DNA of 64,000 nt. It comes from Phenylobacterium soli (GTDB lineage Bacteria; Pseudomonadota; Alphaproteobacteria; Caulobacterales; Caulobacteraceae). Under the pieces are notes generated by a model. It was not told the origin of the DNA, did not search any database, and saw only the letters and a list, made by a program, of their open reading frames with translations. Below are positions 16,189 through 36,972 of this stretch, in pieces; position 1 is the stretch's first letter; each line of letters opens with the position of its first letter. The position numbers and the translations under genes are program-made. The stretch spans positions 124,001 through 188,000 of the forward strand of contig NZ_QFYQ01000001.1 of the NCBI RefSeq assembly GCF_003254475.1, read 5' to 3'.

Positions 16189-17001
16189 ATGAAGTCTCAG
16201 CAGATGGCGCCCGCCCACGGCGGCGCGGCCCCGGCGGTCCAGGTGCTGGATTTTCCCGGTGCGGTCTGGTCCTACGGCGGTGGTCTCAACAACCAGGGCG
16301 ACATGGTCGGCAGCTACGTCGACACCCACCATCACGGGATGGTCTACGAGAACGGACAGCTTACCGGTTTCGACTATCCGGGCGCGGTCTACACCGCCCT
16401 CTCCGATATCAACGACCGCGGCCAGATCCTCGGGATGTATGAGACCGCCGAGAAGCAGCAGCTCATTGGCTTCATCTACGACAAGGGAAGCTACGAGACC
16501 TTCAGCGCGCCGGACGCCCTGCAGACCGAGCCCACCAAGATCAACGACCGGGGCGAGGTGGTCGGGTTCTACTTCGACTCCGGCGGCGGCCACGGCTTCA
16601 TCTACGAGCATGGCGCCTTCACGGTCATCGACGTTCCGGGCGCGAGCTCGACGGAGGCGCTGGGGATCAACGACAAGGGCGAGATCGTCGGCGCCTACTG
16701 GGCCGGCGGCGTGCAGCACGGCTTCATCTACGACCACGGGACGTTCACGACCCTGGACGTCCCCGGCTCGTTCGGCACCCGGCTGAACGGGATCAACAAC
16801 CAGGGCGAGATCGTCGGCTATTCGTACAAGGGCGGCCAGGCCGCGCCGGGGTTCGTCTACAAGGACGGGATGTTCACCGAGTCCGACAGCTACAGCCTGT
16901 TCGACATCAACAACCGCGGCCAGGTGGCCGGCGACTACCAGACCGCGGACGACGTCCACGCCCTGCTCGCCAGCACGCGCAACCTGGGTTGGATGATCTA
17001 G
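16189..17001 (+). CDS. HAF-repeat protein, function unknown
   Basis: A 270-aa protein made of about six repeats of roughly 40 residues. The repeat unit is IN-x-x-G-x-IVG-x-Y, then HGFIY-x-x-G-x-F-T-x-x-D-x-PGA; for example INDKGEIVGAYWAGGVQHGF and INNQGEIVGYSYKGG. This is the HAF-family extracellular repeat pattern, probably a small beta propeller. Unlike most HAF proteins it has no visible signal peptide (MKSQQMAPAHGGAAPAVQV), so it may be cytoplasmic or exported by another route. It stands alone between a secreted NTF2-like protein and a cyclophilin. Confidence 0.8.
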   Translation: MKSQQMAPAHGGAAPAVQVLDFPGAVWSYGGGLNNQGDMVGSYVDTHHHGMVYENGQLTGFDYPGAVYTALSDINDRGQILGMYETAEKQQLIGFIYDKGSYETFSAPDALQTEPTKINDRGEVVGFYFDSGGGHGFIYEHGAFTVIDVPGASSTEALGINDKGEIVGAYWAGGVQHGFIYDHGTFTTLDVPGSFGTRLNGINNQGEIVGYSYKGGQAAPGFVYKDGMFTESDSYSLFDINNRGQVAGDYQTADDVHALLASTRNLGWMI

Positions 17002-18978: not shown

Positions 18979-19488
18979 ATGACGCCGAATCAGCCGCTCC
19001 GCATCCTGGGCCTCGACCCAGGCCTTCGCCGCACCGGCTGGGGCGTGGTGACGATCGACGGCATGCGGCTCGGCCATGTGGCGCACGGGGTGATCGCCCC
19101 CAAGGAAACCCTGCCCTTCGCCGAGCGGCTGCTGTTCCTGTTCGAGGAGATCAGCCAGGTGATCGCCGCCCACCGGCCTGACGAAGCGGCGGTGGAGGAG
19201 ACCTTCGTCAACGTCAACGCCTCCTCGACCCTGAAGCTCGGCCACGCCCGCGCGGCGTGCCTGATCGCCCCGGCCCGCGCCGGCCTGTCGGTGGCCGAAT
19301 ACGCCCCCACCGTGGTCAAGAAGGCGGTGGTCGGGACCGGCGGCGCCGACAAGGCCCAGGTCGGCTTCATGATCCGCCGCCTGCTGCCGACGGCCGGCGA
19401 CACCACCTCGGACGCGGCCGACGCCCTGGCCGTGGCCATCGCCCACGCCCATGCCCGCAAGACCCGGACGATCCGCGGCGCTGCCTGA
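18979..19488 (+). CDS. ruvC: crossover junction endodeoxyribonuclease RuvC
   Basis: A 169-aa protein of normal length. The catalytic acidic residues can be placed at Asp13 (ILGLDPGLRRTGWG), Glu73 (AAVEETFVN), Asp145 and Asp148 (SDAADALAVAIAHAHA), with the same spacing as in Escherichia coli RuvC. It cleaves Holliday junctions symmetrically together with the RuvAB branch-migration motor encoded just downstream. The gap of 90 bp to ruvA may contain a separate promoter, but I see no clear one. Confidence 0.97.
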   Translation: MTPNQPLRILGLDPGLRRTGWGVVTIDGMRLGHVAHGVIAPKETLPFAERLLFLFEEISQVIAAHRPDEAAVEETFVNVNASSTLKLGHARAACLIAPARAGLSVAEYAPTVVKKAVVGTGGADKAQVGFMIRRLLPTAGDTTSDAADALAVAIAHAHARKTRTIRGAA

Positions 19489-19578
19489 ACGGGCGCGGCG
19501 TAAGGCCCGCGCCTTCACGATTGCTCAAGCGACTCGGCTTCCGGTACGACTGGAACAGATGCTGAACGTGAGTCGGAC

Positions 19579-20193
19579 ATGATCGGTCGCCTGCGCGGGA
19601 TCGTCGCCGAGGTGGGCGAGGAAGAAGCCCTCATCGACGTGGCGGGGGTCGGCTATGTCGTGCGCTGCGGCGCGCGCACCCTGTCGCGCCTGCCCGAGAT
19701 CGGCGGCGAGACGGTGCTGCACGTGGAGACCCAGTGGGCCGAGCAGACCGGCATCACCCTCTACGGGTTTCCCACCCGCGACGACCGCCAGGTGTTCGTG
19801 ACCCTGAAGACGATCCAGGGCGTCGGGCCCAAGGCGGCGCTGGCGGTGCTCGACGTGCTGCCGCCGGGCGAGCTCGCCGCCGCGGTGGCGCGCGAGGACA
19901 AGGCCGCCGTCGCCCGCGCCCAGGGCGTGGGCCCCAAGCTCGCCCTGCGCATCGTCACCGAGCTGAAGGGCAAGCCGCTGGGCAGCGGCCCGGCCGCGAC
20001 CTTCCACGCCAACATCGCCGCGCCCGAGCCCGCGAAGCCCTCGCTGGCCGGCGAGGCGGTGGCCGCGCTGATGGGCCTGGGCGTCGCCGAGCCGCAGGCG
20101 CGGCGGGTGGTCGAGCAGGCCGCCGTTCGCCTGGGCGAGGACGCCCCCGCCCCGGCGCTGATCAAGGCCGCCCTGCAGGAGCTCGGGCGATGA
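19579..20193 (+). CDS. ruvA: Holliday junction DNA helicase subunit RuvA
   Basis: A 204-aa protein of usual length. The OB-fold domain starts [28 protein letters not shown], the first helix-hairpin-helix is [15 protein letters not shown], the second is [19 protein letters not shown], and domain III ([24 protein letters not shown]) binds RuvB. RuvA tetramers clamp the four-way junction. The stop overlaps the ruvB ATG by four bases, so the two subunits are translationally coupled. Confidence 0.97.
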
Positions 20194-21218
20194 CCCGGCT
20201 GGTCTCCGGCGAGCCCGAGGCGTTCGAGCCGCAGGACCGCGCGCTGCGGCCGCAGACCCTGGCCGAGTTCGTCGGCCAGGAGCAGGCCAAGGCCAATCTG
20301 CGCGTCTTCATCGAGGGGGCGAAGAACCGGGCCGAGGCGCTGGACCACGTGCTGCTGTTCGGCCCGCCGGGCCTCGGCAAGACCACCCTCGCCCAGATCG
20401 TCGCCCGCGAGCTCGGGGTGAACTTCCGCGCCACCTCCGGGCCGGTGCTGGCCAAGGCCGGCGACCTGGCCGCGATCCTGACCAACCTCGAGCCGCGCGA
20501 CGTCCTGTTCATCGACGAGATCCACCGGCTGGCGTCCAACGTCGAGGAGATCCTCTATCCGGCGATGGAAGATCATGTGCTCGACCTGGTCATCGGCGAG
20601 GGGCCGTCGGCGCGCTCGATCCGCATCGACCTCGCGCCCTTCACCCTGGTCGCGGCGACGACGCGGGCGGGCCTTCTGGCGACGCCGCTGCGCGACCGCT
20701 TCGGCATCCCGTTGCGGCTGGAGTTCTACACCCCGGCCGAGCTGCAGAAGGTGCTGGCCGGGGCGGCGGGCAAGATGGGCTTGGCCATGGACGCCGAGGG
20801 CGCGGCCGAGATCGCCCGCCGCTCGCGCGGGACGCCGCGGGTGGCCGGCCGGCTGCTGCGCCGGGTGCGCGACTTCGCGGCCGCCGACGGGGCGGAGATC
20901 ATCGACCGCAGGGCCGCCGCCTCGGCCCTGGCGCGCCTGGACGTGGACGAGCACGGGCTCGACGCCCTGGACCGCAAGTACCTGCGCGCCCTGATCGAGA
21001 ACTACGCCGGCGGCCCGGCCGGGGTGGAGACCCTCGCCTACGCCATCGCCGAGGCGCGCGATGCGGTGGAGGACGTTATCGAGCCGTTCCTGATGCAGCA
21101 GGGCTTCATCCAGCGCACGCCGCGCGGGCGGATGGCCACCGCGCGCGCCTACGAGCACCTCGGGCTGTCGGCGCCGACGCAGCCGAAGCCGGGCCAGGCG
21201 GGTTTGTTCGACGAATGA
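20190..21218 (+). CDS. ruvB: Holliday junction branch-migration ATPase RuvB
   Basis: A 342-aa AAA+ ATPase. The Walker A motif GPPGLGKTT is at residues 58-66, the Walker B is DVLFIDEIH, sensor 1 is in [10 protein letters not shown], and the arginine finger region is TPLRDRFG. The C-terminal winged helix contains [15 protein letters not shown]. RuvB hexamers pump DNA through the RuvA-bound junction. It overlaps ruvA at its start and ybgC at its end by ATGA, so ruvA, ruvB and ybgC form one coupled unit. Confidence 0.98.
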
Positions 21219-21676
21219 CCCAGCCGCCGAAACCCGCGACGAGCGAACCCTCCATGGGCTGGCTGGAGGGGCGCGAGCACGTCCTGCCGGTGCGCATCTA
21301 CTACGAGGACACCGACTTCACCGGCGTGGTCTACCACGCCAACTACCTGCGCTATTTCGAGCGGGGGCGGTCGGACTTCCTGCGGCTGGCGGGCGTCAGC
21401 CATCAGGGCCTGCTGCAGCTGCCCGATCCGGCGGCCTTCACGGTCACCAGGATCGCCGTCGAGTACAAGCGCGCGGCCCGGGTGGACGACGCGCTTCTGG
21501 TGCGCACCACCTACGACGCCGTGAAGGGGCCGCGGCTGATGATCAGCCAGCGGATTTTCCGCGGCGATGACCTGATCGCCACAGCGGCCGTGGAGGCCGC
21601 CTGCATCGGCATGGACGGGCGTCCCAGGCGTCCGCCGGGCGACCTGATCGCCGCCCTTCAGCCCCTGTTCGGTTGA
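21215..21676 (+). CDS. ybgC: acyl-CoA thioesterase YbgC (Tol-Pal associated)
   Basis: A 153-aa hot-dog-fold protein. [26 protein letters not shown] contains the family signature with the catalytic Asp and His region ([13 protein letters not shown]). YbgC hydrolyses acyl-CoA or acyl-ACP and is regularly the first gene of the tol-pal cluster. It overlaps ruvB by four bases and is 71 bp before tolQ, where a separate promoter for the tol genes could lie. Confidence 0.94.
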
Positions 21677-21747
21677 GCGAATTGCCTTAAAGCCGCCACC
21701 ACAGCACGCCAACCGGGGCGTGTCACATTCCGGAGCGTTACAGCCGC

Positions 21748-22452
<705 letters not shown>

Positions 22453-22455
22453 GGC

Positions 22456-22974
22456 ATGGGGCTGTCGGCCAACGACGCCTTCGCCGCCTCGGGCGGACGC
22501 CGCAGCCGCCGCCGTTACGGCCGCGGCCGGCGCGGCACGCTGTCGGAGATCAACGTCACCCCGCTGGTCGACGTGATGCTGGTGCTGCTGATCATCTTCA
22601 TGATCTCGGCGCCGCTGCTCACGGCCGGCGTGCCGGTGGAGCTGCCCAAGACCGAGGCCGGCTCGATCCAGAACCAGAACGAGCCGCTGACAGTCTCCAT
22701 CCGCGCCGATGGCTCGATCTTCCTGCAGGACGATCCGGTGGCCTTCGCCCAGCTCAGCCCGCGCCTGCGGGAGATGGCCGGCGACAACCACGCCAAGCCG
22801 ATCTACGTGCGCGCCGACGGCCGCGCCTCCTACCAGATCGTCGCCCAGGTCATGGCCTCGCTGTCGACCTCGGGCTTCAGCTCGATCAACCTGATCACCG
22901 ACACGGGGGGGCCGTCCTCGGGCGCCAAGCCGGCGGACACGGCGCCGGCCGCGCAGGAGGCGCCGCAGCCGTGA
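22456..22974 (+). CDS. tolR: Tol-Pal system protein TolR
   Basis: A 172-aa protein of the ExbD/TolR family. A basic N-terminus ([15 protein letters not shown]) precedes [21 protein letters not shown], where the Asp of [10 protein letters not shown] is the essential proton-carrying residue in the membrane helix. The periplasmic domain follows ([12 protein letters not shown] ... [22 protein letters not shown]). It ends with a 25-residue Ala/Pro-rich tail. Its stop overlaps the tolA GTG start. Confidence 0.95.
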
Positions 22975-23765
22975 GACGCAGCGAGGTCTCGCCGGCGTTC
23001 CTGGGCTCGCTCGCCCTGCACGGGACGGTGCTCGCCGCCCTGCTGATCTCCTGGCGTTTCTCGCACGACCTGAAGATCGGCACGGTGGTGCCGGTGACCA
23101 TCGTCGCCAACGCCCCGGCGACGGACCTCAAGGCCGCCGAGCAGGCGCCGCAGGAACAGACCGCCCAGACCGAGCAGCCGGTGGCCGAGGCCCCGCCCCA
23201 GGCGAGCCCGCCGCCGCAGGCCGCGCCGCCGCCGCCCGCGCCCTCTCCAAAACCCGAGCCGGCCAAGCCGGTCCCGACGCCGACGCCCAAGCCGGCCCCC
23301 GCCAAGCCGCAGCCGAAGCCCGAAAAGAGCCTCGACTTCGACGCCCTGGCGGCCAGCCTCTCGAAGTCGATCAAGCCGACGCCGCCGAAGCCCTCGTCCG
23401 CCACCAAGGGCCCGGCCCGACCGGAGACCGCCCTGCAGGCGCGGCCCGCCGCCGGCTCCGGCAATTCCGCCGCCGCCATGAGCGGCCTCGCCAACGAGCT
23501 GCAGCGCCGCTGGAATCCCAACTGCGAGGTCGAGGGCGGCCGCGACGTGGTGATCAAGGTCGGCTTCCAGCTCGGCGCCGGCGGCAATGTGGTGGGCGAC
23601 GTGAGCTCGCAGATCCTGCGCGGGCCGCAGAGCGCCGTGGGCCAGGCCGCCGCCGACCGGGCGGTGCGCGCCGTCTATGCCGCCGCCCCGTTCCGGGACC
23701 TGCCCCGGGAGTTCTATGGTCAGCGGATCACCGTCAACTTCAACGCACGCGAGGCCTGTTCGTGA
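22971..23765 (+). CDS. tolA: Tol-Pal system protein TolA (TonB-like)
   Basis: A 264-aa protein from a GTG overlapping the tolR stop. It has one N-terminal membrane helix ([18 protein letters not shown]), a middle of about 90 residues dominated by Pro, Ala, Lys and Gln ([14 protein letters not shown] and similar), and a C-terminal TonB/TolA-like domain ([21 protein letters not shown] ... [14 protein letters not shown]). The proline-rich middle differs from the long Ala/Lys/Glu helix of enterobacterial TolA and recalls TonB. It bridges the TolQR motor to Pal and TolB. Confidence 0.93.
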
Positions 23766-23785
23766 CCCTTCTTCGGAGCGCATCC

Positions 23786-25084
23786 ATGCGGCTGACGACC
23801 CTGGTCCTGACCCTCTTGGCGGCCTGCGCGGTCAGCCTGGCGGGCCCGCAGGCGGCGCGCGCCGAGATCGAGGTCAACGTTAACCGCGGCGACGTCCAGC
23901 CCCTGCCGATCGCGATCCCCGCCTTCGGCGGCGGCCAGGTGGGCGGCGACATCGCCGGGGTGATCTCCAACAACCTGAGCCGCTCGGGCCTGTTCCGGCC
24001 GCTCGATCCGGCCAGCTTCGTCGACCACGACCTGTCGATCGCGGTGCAGCCGCGCTTCCCGGCCTGGAAGCAGATCAACGCCCAGGCCCTGCTGAATGGC
24101 CAGGTGGTCAACGACAACGGCCGGCTGCGCGTCTCCTTCCGCCTGTGGGACGTCTATTCCGAGCAGCAGCTGCTGGGCCTGGAGTTCACCGCCAGCCCCG
24201 AGAACTGGCGGCGCATCGCGCACAAGATTTCGGACGCGGTCTATGAGCGGCTGACCGGCGAGAAGGGCTATTTCGACACCCGGGTGGTGTTCGTCGCCGA
24301 GAGCGGCGGGCGCGGGTCCAAGGTCAAGCGCCTGGCGATCATGGACCAGGACGGCGCCAACCCGAGCTACCTGACCGACGGCTCGTCGATCGTCATGACC
24401 CCGCGGTTCTCCTCCAACAGCCAGGAGATCACCTACATGGCGCTGCGGCCCGAGGGCTCGTCGGTCTACCTGCTGAACCTCGAAACCGTGCGCCGCGAGA
24501 GCCTCGGCCAGTTCCCGGGCATGGTGTTCGCCCCGCGCTTTTCGCCGGACGGCTCGAAGGTGGCCTTCTCCGTCGAGCGGAGCGGCAACAGCGACATCTT
24601 CGTCATGGACCTGCACAGCCACACCAGCGCCCGGCTGACCGCCGACCCGGCGATCGACACCTCGCCGTCGTTCTCGCCGGACGGGCGCCAGATCGTCTTC
24701 AACTCCGACCGCTCCGGCACGCCGCAGCTCTACGTGATGAACGCCGACGGCTCGAACCCGCGGCGGATCTCCTACGGCCAGGGCAAGTACACGACCCCGG
24801 TCTGGAGCCCGACCGGGGAGTTCATCGCCTTCACCAAGCAGACCGGCGGCGAATTCCACATCGGGGTGATGAAGCCGGACGGCTCGGACGAGCGGCTCCT
24901 GACCTCGAGCTACCTCGACGAGGGCCCGACCTGGGCGCCGAACGGCCGGGTGCTGATGTTCTCGCGCGAGACCTCGGCCGGCGCCTCCAAGCTGTGGACC
25001 GTCGACGTGACGGGCAGGATCCTGCAGCCGGTGCCCTATCCGGGCGCGGCGTCCGACCCCGCCTGGTCGCCTCTGCTGCAATAG
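23786..25084 (+). CDS. tolB: Tol-Pal system periplasmic protein TolB
   Basis: About 432 aa from the ATG at 23786, which has GGAG seven bases upstream and begins the signal peptide [24 protein letters not shown] at 23762 overlapping the tolA stop would add eight residues. After the N-terminal domain ([21 protein letters not shown]) there is a six-bladed propeller of WD40-like repeats: [55 protein letters not shown] and [14 protein letters not shown]. TolB binds Pal and TolA in the periplasm. Confidence 0.96.
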
Positions 25085-25147
25085 ACTTGCGCCTTCACCG
25101 TCATCGTTGGACTCTCACCCCTTGAAACCGAAGGAGACGTCTTCGCC

Positions 25148-25708
25148 ATGGTCATGAGCCTGAACCGCAAGACCGCCTTGCGTCTGGTCCTCGTCGGGGC
25201 CGCCGCGGCCTCGATGGCCGCCTGCGCCTCGAAGCCGAAGCCGGCCTACCCGACGACGCCGACCACGCCCGCGCCGGCGCCCTCGACGCCCGCGCCCGCG
25301 CCGACGCCCGGCCCAGTGAGCGAGCAGGCCCTGCCCGGCTCCGAGCAGGACTTCACCGTCAACGTCGGCGACCGCGTCTATTTCGACTTCGACCGCTACG
25401 ACATCCGCGCCGACGCCCAGCCGCTGCTGGCCTCCCAGGCCGCCTGGCTGAAGAAGTACCCGGCGGTGATGGTCCGCATCGAGGGCAACTGCGACGAACG
25501 CGGCACCCGCGAGTACAACCTGGCCCTCGGCGCCCGCCGGGCCAACACGGTGCGCGACTTCCTCGTCTCGCAGGGCGTCGCCCCGTCCCGGATCACCACC
25601 ATCTCCTACGGCAAGGAGAAGCCGATCGACCAGGGCAGCGGCGACGAAGCCGACCAGCACAACCGCAACGCCCGCACGGCCATCGTCTCGGGCGCCCGGA
25701 CCCGCTGA
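25148..25708 (+). CDS. pal: peptidoglycan-associated lipoprotein Pal
   Basis: A 186-aa outer-membrane lipoprotein. AAGGAGA lies 11 bp before the ATG. The lipobox is SMAAC with Cys26. A Pro/Thr/Ala linker (TTPTTPAPAPSTPAP) leads to the OmpA-like domain: VYFDFDRYDI, then VRIEGNCDERGTREYNLALGARRANTV, the residues that bind diaminopimelate in peptidoglycan, and ISYGKEKPID. Pal tethers the outer membrane to the wall and binds TolB. Its stop shares one base with the cpoB start. Confidence 0.97.
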   Translation: MVMSLNRKTALRLVLVGAAAASMAACASKPKPAYPTTPTTPAPAPSTPAPAPTPGPVSEQALPGSEQDFTVNVGDRVYFDFDRYDIRADAQPLLASQAAWLKKYPAVMVRIEGNCDERGTREYNLALGARRANTVRDFLVSQGVAPSRITTISYGKEKPIDQGSGDEADQHNRNARTAIVSGARTR

Positions 25709-26571
25709 TGACCGGCCGCAGTCGCGCGTTTCCTGCCTCGGTCCCGGCCGTGCTTCTGGGGCTGGCGCTCGCCGCCGGCCCCGTGGCCCTGCCGGCCTTC
25801 GCCCAGGTCCCGATCGACGAGTCCATCTCCAAGCGTGACGCCCGCCGTCTCGACAACATGGAGAAGGTCGTCAGGGAGATGCGCGACATCGTCTTCAAGG
25901 GCCGAGACACCGGCAAGCCGGTGGTCGTGGAGCCGGCGGACACCGACGCGCGGATGGCGGAGTTCACGAACCGGATCAGCGACCTCGAACAGTCGCTGAC
26001 CCGGATCAACGGCTCGCTGGAGACCGCGACCCACGACCTCGACCAGGCGCGCAAGGACAACGCCGCCCTGTCGGCCCAGGTGAAGGCGCTCACCGACCGG
26101 CTGACGGCGCTGGAGCAGAGGCAGGAGGCGGCGGCGCAACCCCCGCCCCCCGCCGCCGGCCCCACCGCGGCCCCGGCCGCGGACGGCCCGACCCCGACCG
26201 AAGCCTTCGCCCACGCCCGCCAGCTGATGCTGGCCGGCAATTACGACGGCGCGGAGGGGGCGTTCCGCGATTACGTCCAGGCCTATCCGGACGCGCCGAA
26301 GACGCCGGAGGCGCGCTACTGGTGGGGCAAGACCCTGTCGGTGCGCGGGGCGCACGCCGAGGCGGCGACCGCCTACATCGGCGCGATCCGCGGCTGGCCA
26401 CAGACGACCTGGGCGCCCGATGCGGTGGTCGAGCTGGCGCGCGAGCTGGTGGCGTTGAAGAAGCCGTCGGACGCCTGCCAGGCGCTGGCCGAGCTGCCCA
26501 AGCACTATCCCAAGGCGACGAGCGTCAAGGCGCGCGCCGGACAGGTCGCCGCCCAGGCGAAGTGCAGCTAG
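25708..26571 (+). CDS. cpoB: Tol-Pal cell-division coordinator CpoB (YbgF)
   Basis: A 287-aa periplasmic protein. The signal peptide is followed by an N-terminal coiled coil (about residues 75-145: ARMAEFTNRISDLEQSLTRI ... ALTDRLTALEQRQEA), a Pro/Ala linker, then TPR repeats from about residue 165 (EAFAHARQLMLAGNYDGAEG, DAPKTPEARYWWGKTL, AVVELARELVALKKPSDACQ). CpoB trimerises through the coiled coil and links Tol function with peptidoglycan synthesis at the septum. Its end overlaps the tilS start by 10 bp. Confidence 0.93.
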   Translation: MTGRSRAFPASVPAVLLGLALAAGPVALPAFAQVPIDESISKRDARRLDNMEKVVREMRDIVFKGRDTGKPVVVEPADTDARMAEFTNRISDLEQSLTRINGSLETATHDLDQARKDNAALSAQVKALTDRLTALEQRQEAAAQPPPPAAGPTAAPAADGPTPTEAFAHARQLMLAGNYDGAEGAFRDYVQAYPDAPKTPEARYWWGKTLSVRGAHAEAATAYIGAIRGWPQTTWAPDAVVELARELVALKKPSDACQALAELPKHYPKATSVKARAGQVAAQAKCS

Positions 26572-30880: not shown

Positions 30881-33800
30881 TCAGAACCGGAAGCGGATCG
30901 TGCCGCGCACGTCATACTCGCGGGTGCGGTCGTCGATGGCTGCGCCGCCGTCGAGGGCGAAGTACATCTGGTCGCCCGTCGCCTTGAGGCCGAGCCGGAC
31001 GATGCCGCCGCCGGACGAGGGCGTCTCCGGATCGAGGGTGAAGGCCGTCCCGCCCTGGAAGCGGGCGGCGGTGACGCCCGGCGCGCCGGAGATCTTCTGC
31101 CGCCAGCCGAGCTTGAGCTCGGGCGCCCAGTGGGACTGGTCCTCGCCGAACTCCCAGCCGAAGGCGACGAGGGCCTGGCCGGTGAAGAGGTCGCCGTCGC
31201 GGGACTCGACCTTGAGGTCGAAGCCCGCCCCGCCGCCGGCCTCCTGGTAGCCATCCTCGGAGAGGCGGATGTAGTCGAGGGAGATTTCGGGCCGGGCGTA
31301 GAAGGCGCCCGCCTTCAGGACGTAGGAGGCGCCGGCGTGGGCGTCGGCGAGCCAGCCGTTCCACTTGCCCCTGGTCGAGCGCGACAGGCCCGCGCCGCCG
31401 AGCCGGCGGTCGCCGTCGAACCAGACGTAGCCGACGCCGGCCCGGGCGTCGGCCTGCAGCGGCCCCTGGCGCAGCCGCCAGTAGGCGCCCGCCTCGGCGA
31501 AGTTCATCACCACCCGCTCGCCCACCTCGGCGCCCTTGTCCTTGTATTCGGTGGTCACGAAGCTGGCGGCGAGGCCGAGGGCGTTCTTCTCGCCGACCAT
31601 CTCGGCCCCGCCGGCCAGGCCGTAGCCGGTGGAGGTGAAGCCGGCGGCCTGTTCGCGGTCGCGGTCGATGCGGAAGGCGATCTCCTGGGCCCAGATGGCC
31701 GAGCCGCCGTAGCCGTCGTGCGGCAGGGCCTGGCCCACCGCCTGGGAGATGGCGCCCGAGATGGCGGCGGCCGACATCAGCGCCCCGCCCGAGTGGTCGG
31801 GCAGCATCTGGTCGTAGAGGGCGCGGAAGCCGCCCTGGGTCTTCTGGGCGAGGAAGGCGCCGCCGATCGCCGGGTCCTTGTCGAGGGCGGCGAACACCGC
31901 CGAATAGGCCTGGGCCCCGGAGCGGTTGAGGCCCAGCTCGGCCGCCGTCTTGGGCCGCAGGTCGACGTTCAGCGAGCCCGCCGCGGCGTCGGCGCGCAGC
32001 GTGGCCTGGTAGAGGAACGGCGCGCCCATGAGGCTCGTACCGACGGCGCCGGCCTGTAGGCTGGCGGCCTTGATCAGCTCGAAGCTCTTCGCGCCTTTGA
32101 GCAGGGAGGCGAGGCTCAGCTCCACACTGGAGCCGCTGGCGAGGCTCGCCGCGCCGGAGACGTCGAAGCGAGTGGCGGTGTTGGCGACCGGATCGATGGT
32201 CACGGCCAGCACCGCCTTGGGGCCGAGCGTCAGGGCGCTGACCTGCAGGGCGCCGGTGTTGGCCAGGGCCAGGCGGCCGTTCTCCACGTCGATGGTGAGG
32301 CGCCCGTCGCTGTCGGTCAGCTTGCCGGCGACGCTGGCGCCGCCGTCGAGGACGAGGGTGTCGGCGCCGGCCCCGAACGAGATGGCGCCGGCGACCGCGC
32401 CGCCCAGCACCTCCAGCCGGTCGTCGCCCGAGCCGAACCGGACCTCGCCGACGATGGCGGGCTTGGAGGTCTCGGTCGCCTTCGACTGGCGGACCACCGC
32501 GCCCGTGGTGTTGGCCGAAAGGTCGATGGCGATCGCCTGGCCGAGGTTGGTCGAGCCGGCCTTGGGCGTGACCGCGGCGGTGATCGCGCCGGTGTTCTCG
32601 ACCAGCTTGAGGCTGCCGGAGAGGTCGACAATGGCGCGGGCGTCCTGCGACCCGCCGGCGAGAGTCGCCTGGATGACCCCGGAGTTCTTGAGCGCCGGGA
32701 CCGCGGCGCCGGCGTTGATCAGCAACGCGGTGGCCGCGCCCCCCTGCGCCGTGACGTCCGCCCCGAAGGCGCTGGCGCTGATCGTGCCGCCCTGGTTGTT
32801 GATCCCGCCGACCAGGGTCGTGGTCCCGCCGCCGGCCTGGCCGACGCGGATGGCGGTGGCCGCCACGCCGTCGTTGACGCCGGCCCCGGTGACCGCGCCG
32901 CGGATCACCAGCCCGTAGCCGTTCTCGCCGGTCCCGACCGCGCCGATGGTGGTGGCGCGGCCCGAGCCCAGGTCGAGGGCCGGAGCCGCGCCGAAGGACG
33001 TGACGCTCGCGGTGCTCTCCTGGGCGTCAGGCGTCCCGTCGTTGTCCTCGTCGGGGTTGCTCGCGTCCTTGTCGGCCGGCGGCTTGTCGAGGAGGATTCC
33101 CTGGCCGACACTGGCCGTCACGCGCACGGCCGCGCCGCCCTGTAGCAGGTCGTCGGCGTCGAGCTTGGCCCGGACGCTGTCGGCCAGGCGCTCGGTGGAG
33201 CGATAGCCGGTGGCGGTAATGGCGTTCTGCAGCAGGAGCGCGCCGCCGACGTCGCCGTTGAGGACGACCCCGCTGGCGCCGCCGCCCTGGGCGACCACCG
33301 CGCCGGTCACCCGCACATCGCCCGTGACCTGCTGGGCCGAGAGGCCGACCGAGCGGTCGCCGATGACGCTGATCGCGCCGGCGTCGACCAGGTTGCCCGC
33401 AAGCTGGGTCTCCACCGAGATGGCGGCGGAGTCGGCGCCTTCGACCGTGATCGAGGCGCCGAGGTTGCTGCGGATGTCGCCGGTGAAGGCGGCCGGGCCG
33501 GTCACGCGGACGCCGAAGCGGGCCGAACCCTGGGCGAAGGGGCCGTCGGGATCGCCGTCGTTGTCGGCGTCGGCGGGGGTGTAGTCCTCGAGCAGGTTGA
33601 TGGCGCCGGTGTTGGTCACCGAGCCCGTATGGCCGCCGAGCGCCAGGACGCCGGTCGCCCCGCTGACGTTGTTGAAGCCGACGACGCCGGCGTTCTTCAC
33701 CGCATTGTTGGAATCGAGGGTCACGGCGGCGCCGGCGGCGGTGGGCTTCACCGAGCCGGCGGAATCGATGGTCAGGTCGTCGGGCGCGCCGCCGGCCGCG

Positions 33801-33910
33801 GTCGAGGTCTTCACCGGCGTGGTCACCGCGGTGGTGATCTTGGTCTCGGCGCGGGCCGCCGAGGCGAGCGCCAGGGGCAGGAGGGCGGCGGTGACGAACA
33901 GACGGCGCAT
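30881..33910 (-). CDS. autotransporter with beta-barrel domain
   Basis: A 1009-aa protein with signal peptide MRRLFVTAALLPLALASAARA. Residues about 25-690 are a repetitive passenger rich in Ala, Gly, Val and Asn, as in beta helices (GSVTNTGAINLLE, NVSGATGVLALGGHTG). From about residue 730 to the end lies an autotransporter barrel that begins near GGSAIWAQEIAFRI and ends in alternating aromatic strands with a terminal Phe (GTIRFRF). Two acidic D-x-D-N-D-G-x-P-D motifs at residues 114-123 and 287-296 look like calcium sites. It is divergent from an XRE regulator. Role probably adhesion or surface protein. Confidence 0.9.
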   Translation of the reverse strand: MRRLFVTAALLPLALASAARAETKITTAVTTPVKTSTAAGGAPDDLTIDSAGSVKPTAAGAAVTLDSNNAVKNAGVVGFNNVSGATGVLALGGHTGSVTNTGAINLLEDYTPADADNDGDPDGPFAQGSARFGVRVTGPAAFTGDIRSNLGASITVEGADSAAISVETQLAGNLVDAGAISVIGDRSVGLSAQQVTGDVRVTGAVVAQGGGASGVVLNGDVGGALLLQNAITATGYRSTERLADSVRAKLDADDLLQGGAAVRVTASVGQGILLDKPPADKDASNPDEDNDGTPDAQESTASVTSFGAAPALDLGSGRATTIGAVGTGENGYGLVIRGAVTGAGVNDGVAATAIRVGQAGGGTTTLVGGINNQGGTISASAFGADVTAQGGAATALLINAGAAVPALKNSGVIQATLAGGSQDARAIVDLSGSLKLVENTGAITAAVTPKAGSTNLGQAIAIDLSANTTGAVVRQSKATETSKPAIVGEVRFGSGDDRLEVLGGAVAGAISFGAGADTLVLDGGASVAGKLTDSDGRLTIDVENGRLALANTGALQVSALTLGPKAVLAVTIDPVANTATRFDVSGAASLASGSSVELSLASLLKGAKSFELIKAASLQAGAVGTSLMGAPFLYQATLRADAAAGSLNVDLRPKTAAELGLNRSGAQAYSAVFAALDKDPAIGGAFLAQKTQGGFRALYDQMLPDHSGGALMSAAAISGAISQAVGQALPHDGYGGSAIWAQEIAFRIDRDREQAAGFTSTGYGLAGGAEMVGEKNALGLAASFVTTEYKDKGAEVGERVVMNFAEAGAYWRLRQGPLQADARAGVGYVWFDGDRRLGGAGLSRSTRGKWNGWLADAHAGASYVLKAGAFYARPEISLDYIRLSEDGYQEAGGGAGFDLKVESRDGDLFTGQALVAFGWEFGEDQSHWAPELKLGWRQKISGAPGVTAARFQGGTAFTLDPETPSSGGGIVRLGLKATGDQMYFALDGGAAIDDRTREYDVRGTIRFRF

Positions 33911-34087
33911 GAGGATTCCCCGAAACGTGCAGTGGCCGGGCTCGACCTGACGCGAGGGGGACTCCCCAGCGGCGGCGAACGTGTTATCTCTCTCACAAGC
34001 GCGATTGCGTCTTGTAAGTACGAGTTAAGTAAAAACTGTATATCTGTTTCGTCGGCCCCATCAAGGGGGCGCGTCCGGAGTCTCGCC
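33911..34087. promoter_or_regulatory. divergent promoter region of autotransporter and XRE gene
   Basis: This 177-bp gap is distinctly AT-rich for the window, especially 33980-34055, as expected for promoters reading both ways. At 33995-34015 there is an inverted repeat (ACAAGCGC, GATT, GCGTCTTGT with one bulged base) that could be an operator for the adjacent XRE protein. Confidence 0.5.
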
Positions 34088-34414
34088 ATGCCCCGTCCCG
34101 CCGCCAGCCCCGCCAAGGCCGCCGAGATCAAGCGGCTGCGCCAGCAGGCCGGCCGCTGGCTGAAGGAGGCGCGGGAAGGCGCCGGCCTGACCCAGGCCGA
34201 ACTCGCCGAGCGGGTGGGGCTGCGCTACTACACCTTCGTCTCCCAGGTGGAGAGCGGGCTCGGCCGGCTGCCGATCGAGACCCAGGGCGCCTGGGCCCAG
34301 GCGCTGGGCCGGGAGCCGCGCGAGTTCGCCCAGACCCTGCTGCGCTACTACGAGCCCGAGCTCTATCGCCTGCTGTTCGACGGCGAGGGCGGCCGCTCGG
34401 CGGTCCAGGCCTGA
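34088..34414 (+). CDS. XRE-family transcriptional regulator
   Basis: A 108-aa protein that is essentially one helix-turn-helix domain: IKRLRQQAGRWLKEAREGAG, LTQAELAERVGLRYYTFVSQ and VESGLGRLPIETQGAWAQALG. A short C-terminal helix (FAQTLLRYYEPELYRLLF) may dimerise. It is divergent from the autotransporter and is followed after 10 bp by the 364-aa unknown protein, so it could control both. This is inferred from position only. Confidence 0.88.
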   Translation: MPRPAASPAKAAEIKRLRQQAGRWLKEAREGAGLTQAELAERVGLRYYTFVSQVESGLGRLPIETQGAWAQALGREPREFAQTLLRYYEPELYRLLFDGEGGRSAVQA

Positions 34415-34424
34415 GGCGGCGGCG

Positions 34425-35519
34425 GTGGGGCAGGTCGTTCCCTTCATCCGCAAGGTCAGCGCCAGCGGCGCCTGGACCGAGGACGAGCGCGCGCGGCTGG
34501 CCGAGCTCGGCGAGCGGCTGATCGCCGCCGGGCTGAAGGTCGAGGTGATCTATGGGGTCAGCGAGGAGGGCGACCCCTGGTGCGTGGTCAAGGACGAGCA
34601 CGAGGACGTGCTGATCCACGTGGCGCGGATCGGCGGCGTCTTCGTCATCCACCATTCCTTCGACGACAGCCTGCGCGAGGGCGAGGACCTGCCCGCCATG
34701 CTCGGCGAGCGGCTGGCCTGGGAAGAGACCCGCGGCGTGGTGATGCCGTTCTCGCGCCAGGCGCAGAGCATCCTGGCGCTGATCGTCGCCACGGCCTTCT
34801 TCTACGAGACCGCCGGACGCGACGAGCCGGACGCGCCTTCGCCGTTCCATCTGCACCTGGTGGGCGGCGACGGCCTGGCCGCCCATGCGGCGTCGGCCCT
34901 CGACGTCGCCCCGCTCGGCGAGGCGGCCCACGACGGGACGGCCGCCGCGCTGCCGCCGTCGCTGGTGGGTTCGGCCGCGAGCGAATGGCGCTCCTTCGCC
35001 TTAGAGGACGACGGCGCCTTGCCGACCGACCACGGCGCCCAGGCCCTGGCCGCCGGGACCGGCGGGCCGGGCGGGGTCTCGCCGATCGCCAACCTGGAGG
35101 TGGCGGCGCCGGCCGCGGTGGCCGCCGCCCCGGTGGTGCTGGCCTTCGAGCCGCGCCTGGCCATGGCCGCCGGCCCGGGCGGCCTCGCGCCCAAGACCAC
35201 CGAGACGCCGACCAACCCGCCGGAGTCGACCTTCGTCGGGGCGGGATTCGTGGGCGCGAGCTTCCGGCCGACCGCGACGGATCACCCGACGCCCTCGACG
35301 CCGGAGCCTCAGGTCACCGCGACCGTCACGCCGGCCAATTCACACTGGGTGGACCTGGATCTCGACGGCGACGGGCGGCCGGACGTGCGGGTGCTGGTCC
35401 CCGACGAGGCCAGGCCCGCGGCCAGGCCGCAGGATCCGCCGGCGCCGGATCACGAGCCGGTCCTGCACGAACCGATCCTGGCGGTCGGCCACGGCTTCCC
35501 GCACGCCGAGTTCGCGTGA
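34425..35519 (+). CDS. unrecognised 364-aa protein with acidic DLDLDGDG motif
   Basis: I do not recognise this protein. It starts at a GTG 10 bp after the XRE gene. Residues 1-130 look like a compact alpha/beta domain (WTEDERARLAELGERLIAAG, KVEVIYGVSEEGDPWCVV, VARIGGVFVIHHSF) with a hydrophobic stretch SILALIVATAFFY near residue 110. Residues 130-300 are low-complexity Ala/Pro/Gly. Residues 310-320 read DLDLDGDGRPD, a calcium-loop-like motif also seen in the divergent autotransporter. Position and shared motif suggest a link to that protein. It might be a cytoplasmic or membrane partner. Confidence 0.75.
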   Translation: MGQVVPFIRKVSASGAWTEDERARLAELGERLIAAGLKVEVIYGVSEEGDPWCVVKDEHEDVLIHVARIGGVFVIHHSFDDSLREGEDLPAMLGERLAWEETRGVVMPFSRQAQSILALIVATAFFYETAGRDEPDAPSPFHLHLVGGDGLAAHAASALDVAPLGEAAHDGTAAALPPSLVGSAASEWRSFALEDDGALPTDHGAQALAAGTGGPGGVSPIANLEVAAPAAVAAAPVVLAFEPRLAMAAGPGGLAPKTTETPTNPPESTFVGAGFVGASFRPTATDHPTPSTPEPQVTATVTPANSHWVDLDLDGDGRPDVRVLVPDEARPAARPQDPPAPDHEPVLHEPILAVGHGFPHAEFA

Positions 35520-35550
35520 CGTCGGGTTCGCTTAAGGCCCGGGACAGGAC

Positions 35551-36972
35551 CTAGAGGGCCTTCAGGATCCCTTCGACCATCTTCTTGGCGTCGCCGAACA
35601 GCATCATGGTGTTGTCGCGGAAGAAGAGCTCGTTCTCGACCCCGGCGTAGCCCGAGCCCATGCCGCGCTTCACGAACAGCACGGTGCGGGCCTTCTCGAC
35701 GTCGAGGATGGGCATGCCGAAGATCGGCGAGGAGGGATCGGTCTTGGCCGCCGGGTTGGTGACGTCGTTGGCGCCGATGACGAAGGCGACGTCGGCGGTC
35801 GGGAACTCGGCGTTGATGTCCTCCAGCTCGAAGACCTCGTCGTAGGGGACGTTGGCCTCGGCGAGGAGGACGTTCATGTGGCCCGGCATGCGGCCGGCCA
35901 CGGGGTGGATGGCGTACTTCACCTCCACGCCCTCTTCCTTGAGCTTGTCGGCCATTTCGCGGAGGGCGTGCTGGGCCTGGGCGACGGCCATGCCGTAGCC
36001 GGGGACGATGATCACCTTGGAGGCGTTCTTCATGATGAAGGCCGCGTCGTCTGCCGAGCCCTGCTTGACGGGCCGCGTCTCGACCCGCCCGCCGCCGGCG
36101 CCCGCCGCCGCGTCGTCGGCGCCGAAGCCGCCGAGGATCACCGAGATGAAGCTGCGGTTCATCCCCTTGCACATGATGTAGCTGAGGATGGCGCCCGAGG
36201 AGCCGACCAGGGCGCCGGTGATGATCAGGGTGATGTTCTCGAGGGTGAAGCCGAGAGCCGCCGCCGCCCAGCCCGAATAGCTGTTCAGCATCGAGACCAC
36301 GACCGGCATGTCGGCGCCGCCGATCGGGATGATCAGGGTGACGCCGATCAGCAGGGAGAGGCCGAAGATCCCCCAGAAGGCCCACAGGGCCGAGCCGCCG
36401 CTCATCACCAGCACGACGATCAGGGCGACGATGCCCAGGCCGATGGCGATGTTCAGCAGGTGGCGGGCGGGCAGCAGGATCGGTGCGCCGCTCATGTTGC
36501 CGTTCAGCTTGGCGAAGGCGATCACCGAGCCGGTGAAGGTGACCGCGCCGATCGCGAGGCCGACGGAAAGCTCGATGAGCGACTTGAGCTGCACCGCCCC
36601 GTCAGGGCCGACGATGCCGTAGGCCGCCGGGGTGTGGATGGCGGCCACCGCCACCAGGCAGGCGGCCATGCCGACCAGGCTGTGGAAGGCGGCGACGAGC
36701 TGCGGCATGGAGGTCATGGCCACGCGGCGGGCGATGATCGCCCCGACCGTGCCGCCGATGGCCACGCCGACCCCGATGAGGCCGAGGGTGAGCACGTCCA
36801 GCACCCCCTGCCCCCAGAGGGTGGCGAGGGTCGTGGCCACGGCGATGGCCATGCCGATCATGCCGTTGCGGTTGCCGGTGCGGCTGGTTTCCGGGCTCGA
36901 CAGGCCGCGGAGCGCCAGGATGAAGAGGACGCCTGACGCGAGGTACAGGACGGCGGCGAGATTGGCGTTCAT
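35551..36972 (-). CDS. pntB: NAD(P) transhydrogenase subunit beta
   Basis: A 473-aa protein with about nine membrane helices (from NLAAVLYLASGVLFILALRG to ALVGSSGAILSYIMCKG), then a cytoplasmic NADP-binding domain III from about residue 285. This contains VIIVPGYGMAVAQAQHALREM, IHPVAGRMPGHMNVLLAEA and GANDVTNPAAKTDP, all family hallmarks. The complex passes hydride from NADH to NADP+ driven by proton entry. It is last in the pntAA-pntAB-pntB operon. Confidence 0.97.
   Translation of the reverse strand: MNANLAAVLYLASGVLFILALRGLSSPETSRTGNRNGMIGMAIAVATTLATLWGQGVLDVLTLGLIGVGVAIGGTVGAIIARRVAMTSMPQLVAAFHSLVGMAACLVAVAAIHTPAAYGIVGPDGAVQLKSLIELSVGLAIGAVTFTGSVIAFAKLNGNMSGAPILLPARHLLNIAIGLGIVALIVVLVMSGGSALWAFWGIFGLSLLIGVTLIIPIGGADMPVVVSMLNSYSGWAAAALGFTLENITLIITGALVGSSGAILSYIMCKGMNRSFISVILGGFGADDAAAGAGGGRVETRPVKQGSADDAAFIMKNASKVIIVPGYGMAVAQAQHALREMADKLKEEGVEVKYAIHPVAGRMPGHMNVLLAEANVPYDEVFELEDINAEFPTADVAFVIGANDVTNPAAKTDPSSPIFGMPILDVEKARTVLFVKRGMGSGYAGVENELFFRDNTMMLFGDAKKMVEGILKAL

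What the first reader, a model, noticed from the sequence alone, without database searches (positions are those of the whole stretch)
30881..35519. Autotransporter facing an XRE regulator and an unknown protein with a shared calcium-like motif
The 1009-aa autotransporter carries two D-x-D-N-D-G-x-P-D motifs inside its beta-helix passenger, and the divergent 364-aa unknown protein ends with DLDLDGDGRPD. The XRE gene sits between them with an inverted repeat in the gap. The 364-aa protein has no family I recognise. A regulated surface system is possible, with the unknown protein as an accessory or second regulator.
Basis: partly seen in the sequence, partly recalled or inferred. Interest (0 to 1): 0.55.

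Follow-up and report, generated by a model that had tools for sequence, protein, structure and literature searches.

The report
Regulator and membrane-protein pair beside autotransporter
A Phenylobacterium-like bacterium carries a conserved two-gene unit, a DNA-binding regulator plus a membrane protein of an unnamed family, that probably controls the large surface protein encoded next to it, and the same two-gene unit often sits beside protein-secretion genes in other bacteria.

Summary
The three genes are real, but the reading changes. The 364-aa protein belongs to an unnamed alphaproteobacterial family: conserved N-terminal domain (no clear Pfam, NCBIfam or PDB match), one predicted membrane helix, fast-evolving linker, usually RTX calcium repeats and a DxDGDG loop. 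The window copy has lost the RTX part; its closest relative keeps it. A dedicated XRE subfamily lies directly upstream in 61 of 63 named loci; of 289 alphaproteobacterial genomes all 15 with the domain have that XRE (17 have it). In Phenylobacterium an autotransporter faces the pair in 33 of 37 readable loci, across a conserved 46-bp block; 19 of 19 autotransporter loci without the pair beside them lack the block. Its right half also precedes XRE in 10 of 10 Caulobacter-type loci without an autotransporter. Elsewhere the pair often sits beside type I secretion genes (13 of 21). The autotransporter's calcium loops do not depend on the pair, and the reported inverted repeat was not found. Best reading: a local XRE plus membrane co-regulator module controlling itself and a surface-export gene. 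Regulation, topology and calcium binding are inferred. Seven paper searches found nothing on the pair.

The parts
30881..33910 (-). Autotransporter (type Va), 1009 aa: signal-peptide-like start, beta-helix passenger about 22-653, helical linker, barrel about 736-1008
   Evidence: Pfam PF03797 E 2.4e-30; AlphaFold2 mean pLDDT 88; Foldseek best matches EstA, AaaA, NalP, EspP; relatives in 130 of 149 genomes of the family
33545..33571 (-). Calcium-type loop 1 of the autotransporter (DADNDGDPD, residues 114-122)
   Evidence: Conserved in 31 of 31 pair-linked autotransporters; between passenger strands in the model
33026..33052 (-). Calcium-type loop 2 of the autotransporter (DEDNDGTPD, residues 287-295)
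   Evidence: 25 of 31; the loop is missing in six
33995..34040 (.). Conserved 46-bp operator/promoter-like block in the divergent gap; its consensus contains a degenerate direct repeat 15 bp apart (CGTCGCGTA / TGTTTCGTA)
   Evidence: Alignment of 29 gaps, matrix scans; its right end occurs once in this genome at up to 3 mismatches
34088..34414 (+). XRE-family regulator, 108 aa
   Evidence: HTH_3 E 3.4e-7; alignment of 19 relatives
34425..35519 (+). 364-aa membrane-type protein (GTG start), partner gene of the XRE regulator
34425..34724 (+). Conserved N-terminal domain (residues 1-100), predicted helix, five strands, helix
   Evidence: AlphaFold2 pLDDT mostly 80-88 for residues 20-90; low dN against dS between close relatives
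34761..34814 (+). Predicted membrane helix (residues about 113-130), N-in/C-out by flanking charges
35352..35384 (+). DLDLDGDGRPD calcium-type loop (residues 310-320); the RTX repeats that precede it in relatives are missing here

Best explanation
The XRE gene and the 364-aa gene are a two-gene regulatory module. XRE binds the conserved block in the divergent gap and controls its own operon and the autotransporter promoter. The second protein sits in the inner membrane with its conserved N-terminal domain in the cytoplasm, where it acts on XRE, and with its linker and calcium-type part outside, so that the state of the outer part (calcium, export, surface status) is passed to XRE. Shown by computation: the strict gene pairing, the conserved block and its presence or absence with the pair, the purifying selection on the N-domain, the neighbourhood of secretion genes elsewhere. 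Inferred: DNA binding, the sign of control, contact between N-domain and XRE, membrane topology, calcium binding.
For: XRE directly upstream in 61 of 63 named loci, median gap 17 bp. The same 29 of 100 relatives have both genes. Class-wide: domain in 15 of 289 genomes, XRE subfamily in 17 of 289, all 15 inside the 17. One of the two extra XRE genomes has a lone 102-aa N-domain relative right after XRE, without helix or RTX (L189; hhalign probability 87), so the N-domain can go with XRE without the exported part. N-domain dN 0.01-0.11 against dS 0.21-0.68 in 11 close pairs; linker dN 0.10-0.64. Conserved 46-bp block in 29 of 29 aligned gaps, matrix scores 45-78; loci not used for the matrix: L059 42.6, L061 61.4, L074 57.4, L102 64.8, L083 70.2, L095 56.7, L179 71.5. 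In 19 of 19 autotransporter loci without the pair beside them the best score is -3.5 or lower. In 10 of 10 Caulobacter-type loci without autotransporter the best hit of the locus lies about 100-220 bp upstream of XRE and keeps the right half. The right-hand 19 bp occur only once in the own genome, which suggests a local regulator. Type I secretion ABC plus HlyD beside the pair in 13 of 21 other loci (with L183 and L184); seven of these ABCs were checked and exceed the TIGR01842 cut-off.
Against: No DNA-binding or expression data. The block could be merely two promoters. The matrix was trained on pair-linked gaps; two further pair-linked loci score low (L094 16.4; L182 9.7). Autotransporter loci without the pair may lack the block simply because it was deleted with the pair or never came. 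RTX repeats and C-terminal ends are typical of secreted cargo, not of sensors. The window copy has lost the RTX part. The pair exists without the autotransporter beside it in Phenylobacterium-type genomes too (L073, L075, L095; G041).
Confidence: 0.5

Rival explanations
1. The 364-aa family are type I secretion cargoes: RTX surface proteins that leave the cell C-terminus first and stay tethered by their N-terminal helix and domain, with XRE a plain transcription regulator of the operon and of the autotransporter.
For: RTX nonapeptides (two or more) in 26 of 29 and 19 of 33 members of two sets; Pfam PF00353 in 6 of 10 scanned; C-terminal ends that look like known cargo (judged by eye against a recalled pattern); type I secretion ABC plus HlyD adjacent in 13 of 21 loci (L183 and L184). 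That RTX repeats and a C-terminal signal mark such cargo is stated in PMC8277102 (passages seen).
Against: The N-domain is the most constrained part and occurs alone beside XRE in L189; among the 63 named loci only L115, L118, L120 and L121 have such an ABC in the fetched flanks, none of the Phenylobacterium or Caulobacter-type ones; the window copy has no RTX.
Confidence: 0.3
2. Passive neighbourhood: the XRE pair regulates only itself, and the autotransporter merely shares the divergent gap.
For: Outside Phenylobacterium the pair lives without the autotransporter beside it, and the autotransporter is far more widespread than the pair (130 of 149 against 23 of 149 genomes).
Against: 24 of 29 pair genomes keep the arrangement, at two different genomic places, beside pntAB/M23 and beside glnB; the left half of the block is conserved only where the autotransporter is there, and the block is decayed in L073 and L075, where it is gone (L095, also without it, still scores 56.7).
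Confidence: 0.17
3. The pair is a toxin-antitoxin or phage-derived element.
For: Weak similarity of XRE to HipB/Y4mF antitoxins, far below cut-offs; L189 lies next to an integrase-like ORF (named by eye).
Against: No toxin family match for the second protein in Pfam or NCBIfam; conservation with fixed neighbours; membrane helix and RTX part. PADLOC and PHROGs were not searched.
Confidence: 0.03

Closest known systems
Type Va autotransporters (EstA, AaaA, NalP, EspP barrels)
   Same: Signal-peptide-like start, beta-helix passenger, helical linker, C-terminal barrel
   Different: Passenger has calcium-type loops; no passenger function assigned; sits in a divergent pair with the XRE gene
RTX proteins of type I secretion
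   Same: Relatives of the 364-aa protein carry RTX nonapeptides and often lie beside PrtD-type ABC and HlyD genes
   Different: Conserved N-terminal domain plus membrane helix and a dedicated XRE gene; the window copy has no RTX repeats
DNA-binding regulators with a dedicated membrane partner, such as LytTR regulatory systems or anti-sigma factors (recalled, not tested)
   Same: Two-gene unit of a small DNA-binding protein and a single-pass membrane protein
   Different: XRE-type HTH; the partner domain has no clear match to a known family or fold
LapA-type adhesins held at the surface by an N-terminal retention module (recalled; PMC6890996 seen as a listing)
   Same: Idea of an exported protein held by its N-terminal end
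   Different: No sequence relation was tested; here a membrane helix follows the N-terminal domain

Membership tests
Type Va autotransporter | C-terminal autotransporter beta-domain | tested here: met
   PF03797 106.6 bits, cut-off 26; barrel in the model
Type Va autotransporter | N-terminal Sec signal peptide | tested here: inconclusive
   Judged by eye from the sequence; no predictor was run
Type Va autotransporter | Beta-helix passenger | tested here: met
   AlphaFold2 strands 22-653, mostly high confidence; surface location not tested
XRE family regulator | HTH_3-type domain | tested here: met
   PF01381 30.6 bits, cut-off 23
RTX protein | GGxGxDxUx nonapeptide repeats | tested here: not met
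   None in the window protein; two or more in 26 of 29 members of the first set
Type I secretion cargo | C-terminal secretion signal and dependence on a type I secretion system | not testable with these tools
   Only neighbourhood and end sequences were seen
The XRE-partner family described here | N-domain with W17, G44, G49, P51, W52, A67, R68 | tested here: met
   Invariant in the 61 aligned sequences, window included
Type II toxin-antitoxin antitoxin (HipB/Y4mF-like) | Score above the family cut-off | tested here: not met
   26.7 bits against 71.65 (TIGR03070) and 14.6 against 79 (NF007271)

The most novel reading that the evidence does not exclude
An undescribed kind of export-coupled gene switch: the cytoplasmic N-domain holds or activates XRE, and the exported, calcium-folding tail of the same molecule reports outside calcium or the working state of the secretion machine, so that surface-protein genes (an autotransporter here, type I secretion genes elsewhere) are switched on only when their product can be delivered.
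Probability: 0.18. Interest if true: 0.82.

Novelty: new variant of a known kind. Interest (0 to 1): 0.55.

Why it matters
It ties an orphan protein family found in several alphaproteobacterial families to a dedicated regulator with near one-to-one co-occurrence, gives it a predicted operator, and links it to surface-export genes. If the membrane partner really reports on the outside to XRE, it would be a simple one-step way to couple surface-protein synthesis to export or calcium. The pairing and the predicted operator make this directly testable in culturable Phenylobacterium and Caulobacter strains.

Tried and rejected
Inverted repeat in the gap: not found beyond 9-nt arms 115 nt apart. Sigma-70 and terminator consensus scan of 33800-35650: nothing. 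Shared calcium motif as a functional link: rejected, since 13 of 19 autotransporters without the pair beside them have loop 1 as well (slightly looser pattern). Fold of the N-domain: Foldseek best E 0.17, VIA-align best Z 7.2, within the background that the tool states, PDB profile search best E 0.12; this does not show that the fold is new. Weak Pfam hits of single members (TY-Chap3 0.0087, DAC 0.0099) were not followed. PrtD presence as a predictor of the pair: useless, since 37 of 60 genomes, most Phenylobacterium among them, have one over the cut-off. A pattern for the DxDGDG loop matched nothing because it was badly written; redone. An ABC gene beside the pair in L116 is an ABC-F protein and was not counted.

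Rows dropped or added by hand: L059, L061, L074, L094 and L102 were left out of the operator training set (broken, cut or badly started autotransporter ORFs) and used as test loci. One search counted 32 of 39 Phenylobacterium-type loci as adjacent; L066 was added by eye because its XRE ORF start was called too far upstream (33 of 39); L083 and L100 have under 300 bp before XRE and were dropped for '33 of 37'. The four non-adjacent ones are L073, L075, L090, L095; L090 is titled Caulobacter and is also one of the ten Caulobacter-type loci of the operator count (the others: L097, L098, L099, L101, L103-L106, L111). L109 and L117, also titled Caulobacter or Caulobacterales, show no block and are not in those ten. 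L180, L181 and L187 repeat loci of the training set and were not counted as tests. L172 among the 19 autotransporter loci is from G041, which has the pair elsewhere. The 21 loci of the secretion-gene count are L115, L116, L118, L120, L121, L144-L157, L183, L184 (L143 is the same place as L116); L141, L142 and L158 came in the same call but are outside that set. Papers: searches are searches of which only listings were seen; one search showed passages of PMC8277102.
Full report
The window lies in a 4.0-Mb genome of a Phenylobacterium-like bacterium (genus inferred from the best named relatives). The three ORFs of the finding exist at the given places. Minus strand 33910-30881 is a 1009-aa autotransporter, modelled with mean pLDDT 88 as beta-helix, helical linker and barrel, the barrel closest to EstA, AaaA, NalP and EspP. 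The XRE protein most likely starts at 34088 (108 aa; relatives share this start). The 364-aa protein starts at a GTG at 34425, 10 bp after the XRE stop.

What the 364-aa protein is. Pfam and NCBIfam give no match worth the name. Relatives in the genus show a common plan: an N-terminal domain of about 100 residues, a hydrophobic helix near 115-131 with more positive charge before than after it (N-in, C-out by the usual rule), a linker rich in Ala and Pro, RTX nonapeptides, a DxDGDGxxDGYxLV loop and a short C-terminus. Two or more RTX motifs are in 26 of 29 members of the first set, window included; Pfam PF00353 matches 6 of 10 scanned homologues. The window copy has none. Its nearest relative found, G181 (autotransporter 67%, XRE 81% identical), has a 440-aa protein with RTX repeats, so the window copy has most likely lost that part. 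The N-domain is the most constrained part: dN 0.01-0.11 and dS 0.21-0.68 in 11 close pairs, against linker dN 0.10-0.64. AlphaFold2 gives helix, five strands, helix for residues 19-100 (pLDDT mostly 80-88) and a helix at 113-130 of low confidence. Neither Foldseek (best E 0.17) nor VIA-align (best Z 7.2) nor a PDB profile search (best E 0.12) gives a clear relative.

The pair. In 100 relatives the protein is found in 29, all of the same genus; the XRE protein (E below 1e-20) in the same 29, adjacent by coordinates. In 63 named loci from a scan of one genome per species, XRE lies directly upstream in 61; the exceptions are L119, a lone N-domain, and L120, where XRE lies 8 kb away beyond type I secretion genes. 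In 289 genomes of the class the N-domain is in 15 and the XRE subfamily (E up to 1e-15) in 17, all 15 within the 17. Of the two extra genomes one (G439, L189) has a 102-aa lone N-domain relative behind XRE; the other (G435, L188) has XRE beside a type I secretion ABC and HlyD, and no N-domain was found in the gene after XRE.

The autotransporter. Matches are in 58 of 100 relatives and 130 of 149 genomes of the family, far more than the pair (23 of 149). Of the 29 pair genomes 27 have one and 24 have it divergently next to XRE; in G016 and G020 the pair lies at a contig edge, G041 has the autotransporter elsewhere, G011 and G052 show none (at most 8 candidates per genome were scored). Of the 31 same-genus genomes without the pair 14 have it. 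Among named loci 33 of 37 readable Phenylobacterium-type loci show the arrangement (plus L066 by eye); L096, titled Sphingomonadaceae, has XRE, partner and autotransporter all on one strand. A tree of 50 autotransporters puts the pair-linked ones in two groups with pair-less ones between (quick method, long branches noted by the tool). One group, with the window, sits at pntAB/M23. The other sits beside glnB in the order autotransporter, XRE, partner, glnB (L079, L084), while its pair-less sister group has glnB directly beside the autotransporter (glnB and pntAB named by eye). The pair was thus gained or lost precisely at that spot; the data do not decide which.

The gap. 29 aligned gaps share a 46-bp block (window 33995-34040), consensus ACGAGCGGTTATACGTCGCGTATTAATTTGTTTCGTAATTACTGTA, with a degenerate direct repeat at 15 bp. 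Training scores are 45-78 bits. Loci not used for training: L059 42.6, L061 61.4, L074 57.4, L102 64.8, L083 70.2, L095 56.7, L179 71.5, but L094 only 16.4 and L182 9.7. In 19 autotransporter loci without the pair beside them the best score is -3.5. In 10 of 10 Caulobacter-type loci with the pair and without autotransporter the best hit of the locus lies upstream of XRE and keeps the right half, not the left; L109 and L117 do not show it. In L073 and L075, where the autotransporter is gone, the block is decayed (9.2 and 32.3), but in L095, also without it, the score is 56.7. The right end of the window's block occurs once in the genome at up to three mismatches. This fits an XRE that acts locally on its own promoter and on that of the autotransporter. 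No binding was tested.

Elsewhere. Among 21 distinct loci of the more distant relatives, 13 have a type I secretion ABC (40% identity or more to the ABC of L121 or L115) with HlyD within the fetched flanks (L183 and L184). Seven of these ABCs were scanned and all exceed the TIGR01842 cut-off. L183 has HlyD and TolC-like genes only. Of the 63 named loci only L115, L118, L120 and L121 have such an ABC, so the Phenylobacterium and Caulobacter-type loci serve as a contrast.

Calcium motifs. In the autotransporter, loop 1 is kept in 31 of 31 and loop 2 in 25 of 31 pair-linked copies, but 13 of 19 copies without the pair beside them also have loop 1. The likeness to DLDLDGDGRPD is that of a common calcium-binding type of loop (recalled), not evidence of shared work.

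Reading. Shown by computation: a two-gene unit of XRE and a membrane-type protein of an unnamed family, a conserved block in the gap, and repeated association with surface-export genes. Inferred: XRE controls both divergent units; the N-domain acts on XRE; the outer part senses or is exported. The main rival is that the family are tethered type I secretion cargoes. Seven paper searches (listings only) showed no description of the pair; the library holds open-licence PMC papers only.

Noticed in passing
L107, L112, L114 (Niveispirillum and relatives): Two XRE-partner pairs stand in tandem a few kb apart.
   Followed up: no
L189 1491-2101 (G439): XRE followed by a lone 102-aa N-domain without helix or RTX, next to an integrase-like ORF: possibly a mobile, minimal form of the pair.
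   Followed up: partly
L059, L061, L005: Autotransporter, PntB or partner ORFs are broken into overlapping frames; the two named contigs (L059, L061) are canu assemblies, so sequencing errors are likely.
   Followed up: no
window 18979-26571: RuvC, YbgC, TolQ, TolR, TolB, Pal and CpoB-like genes lie a few kb from the finding; named by eye.
   Followed up: no
window 16189-17001: 270-aa protein with repeat-like stretches (LDFPGAVWSYGGGLNNQGDMVGSYVD), no family looked up.
   Followed up: no
L119 10010-10315: Lone 101-aa N-domain without an XRE gene in the fetched flank, in a Rhodospirillales MAG.
   Followed up: no
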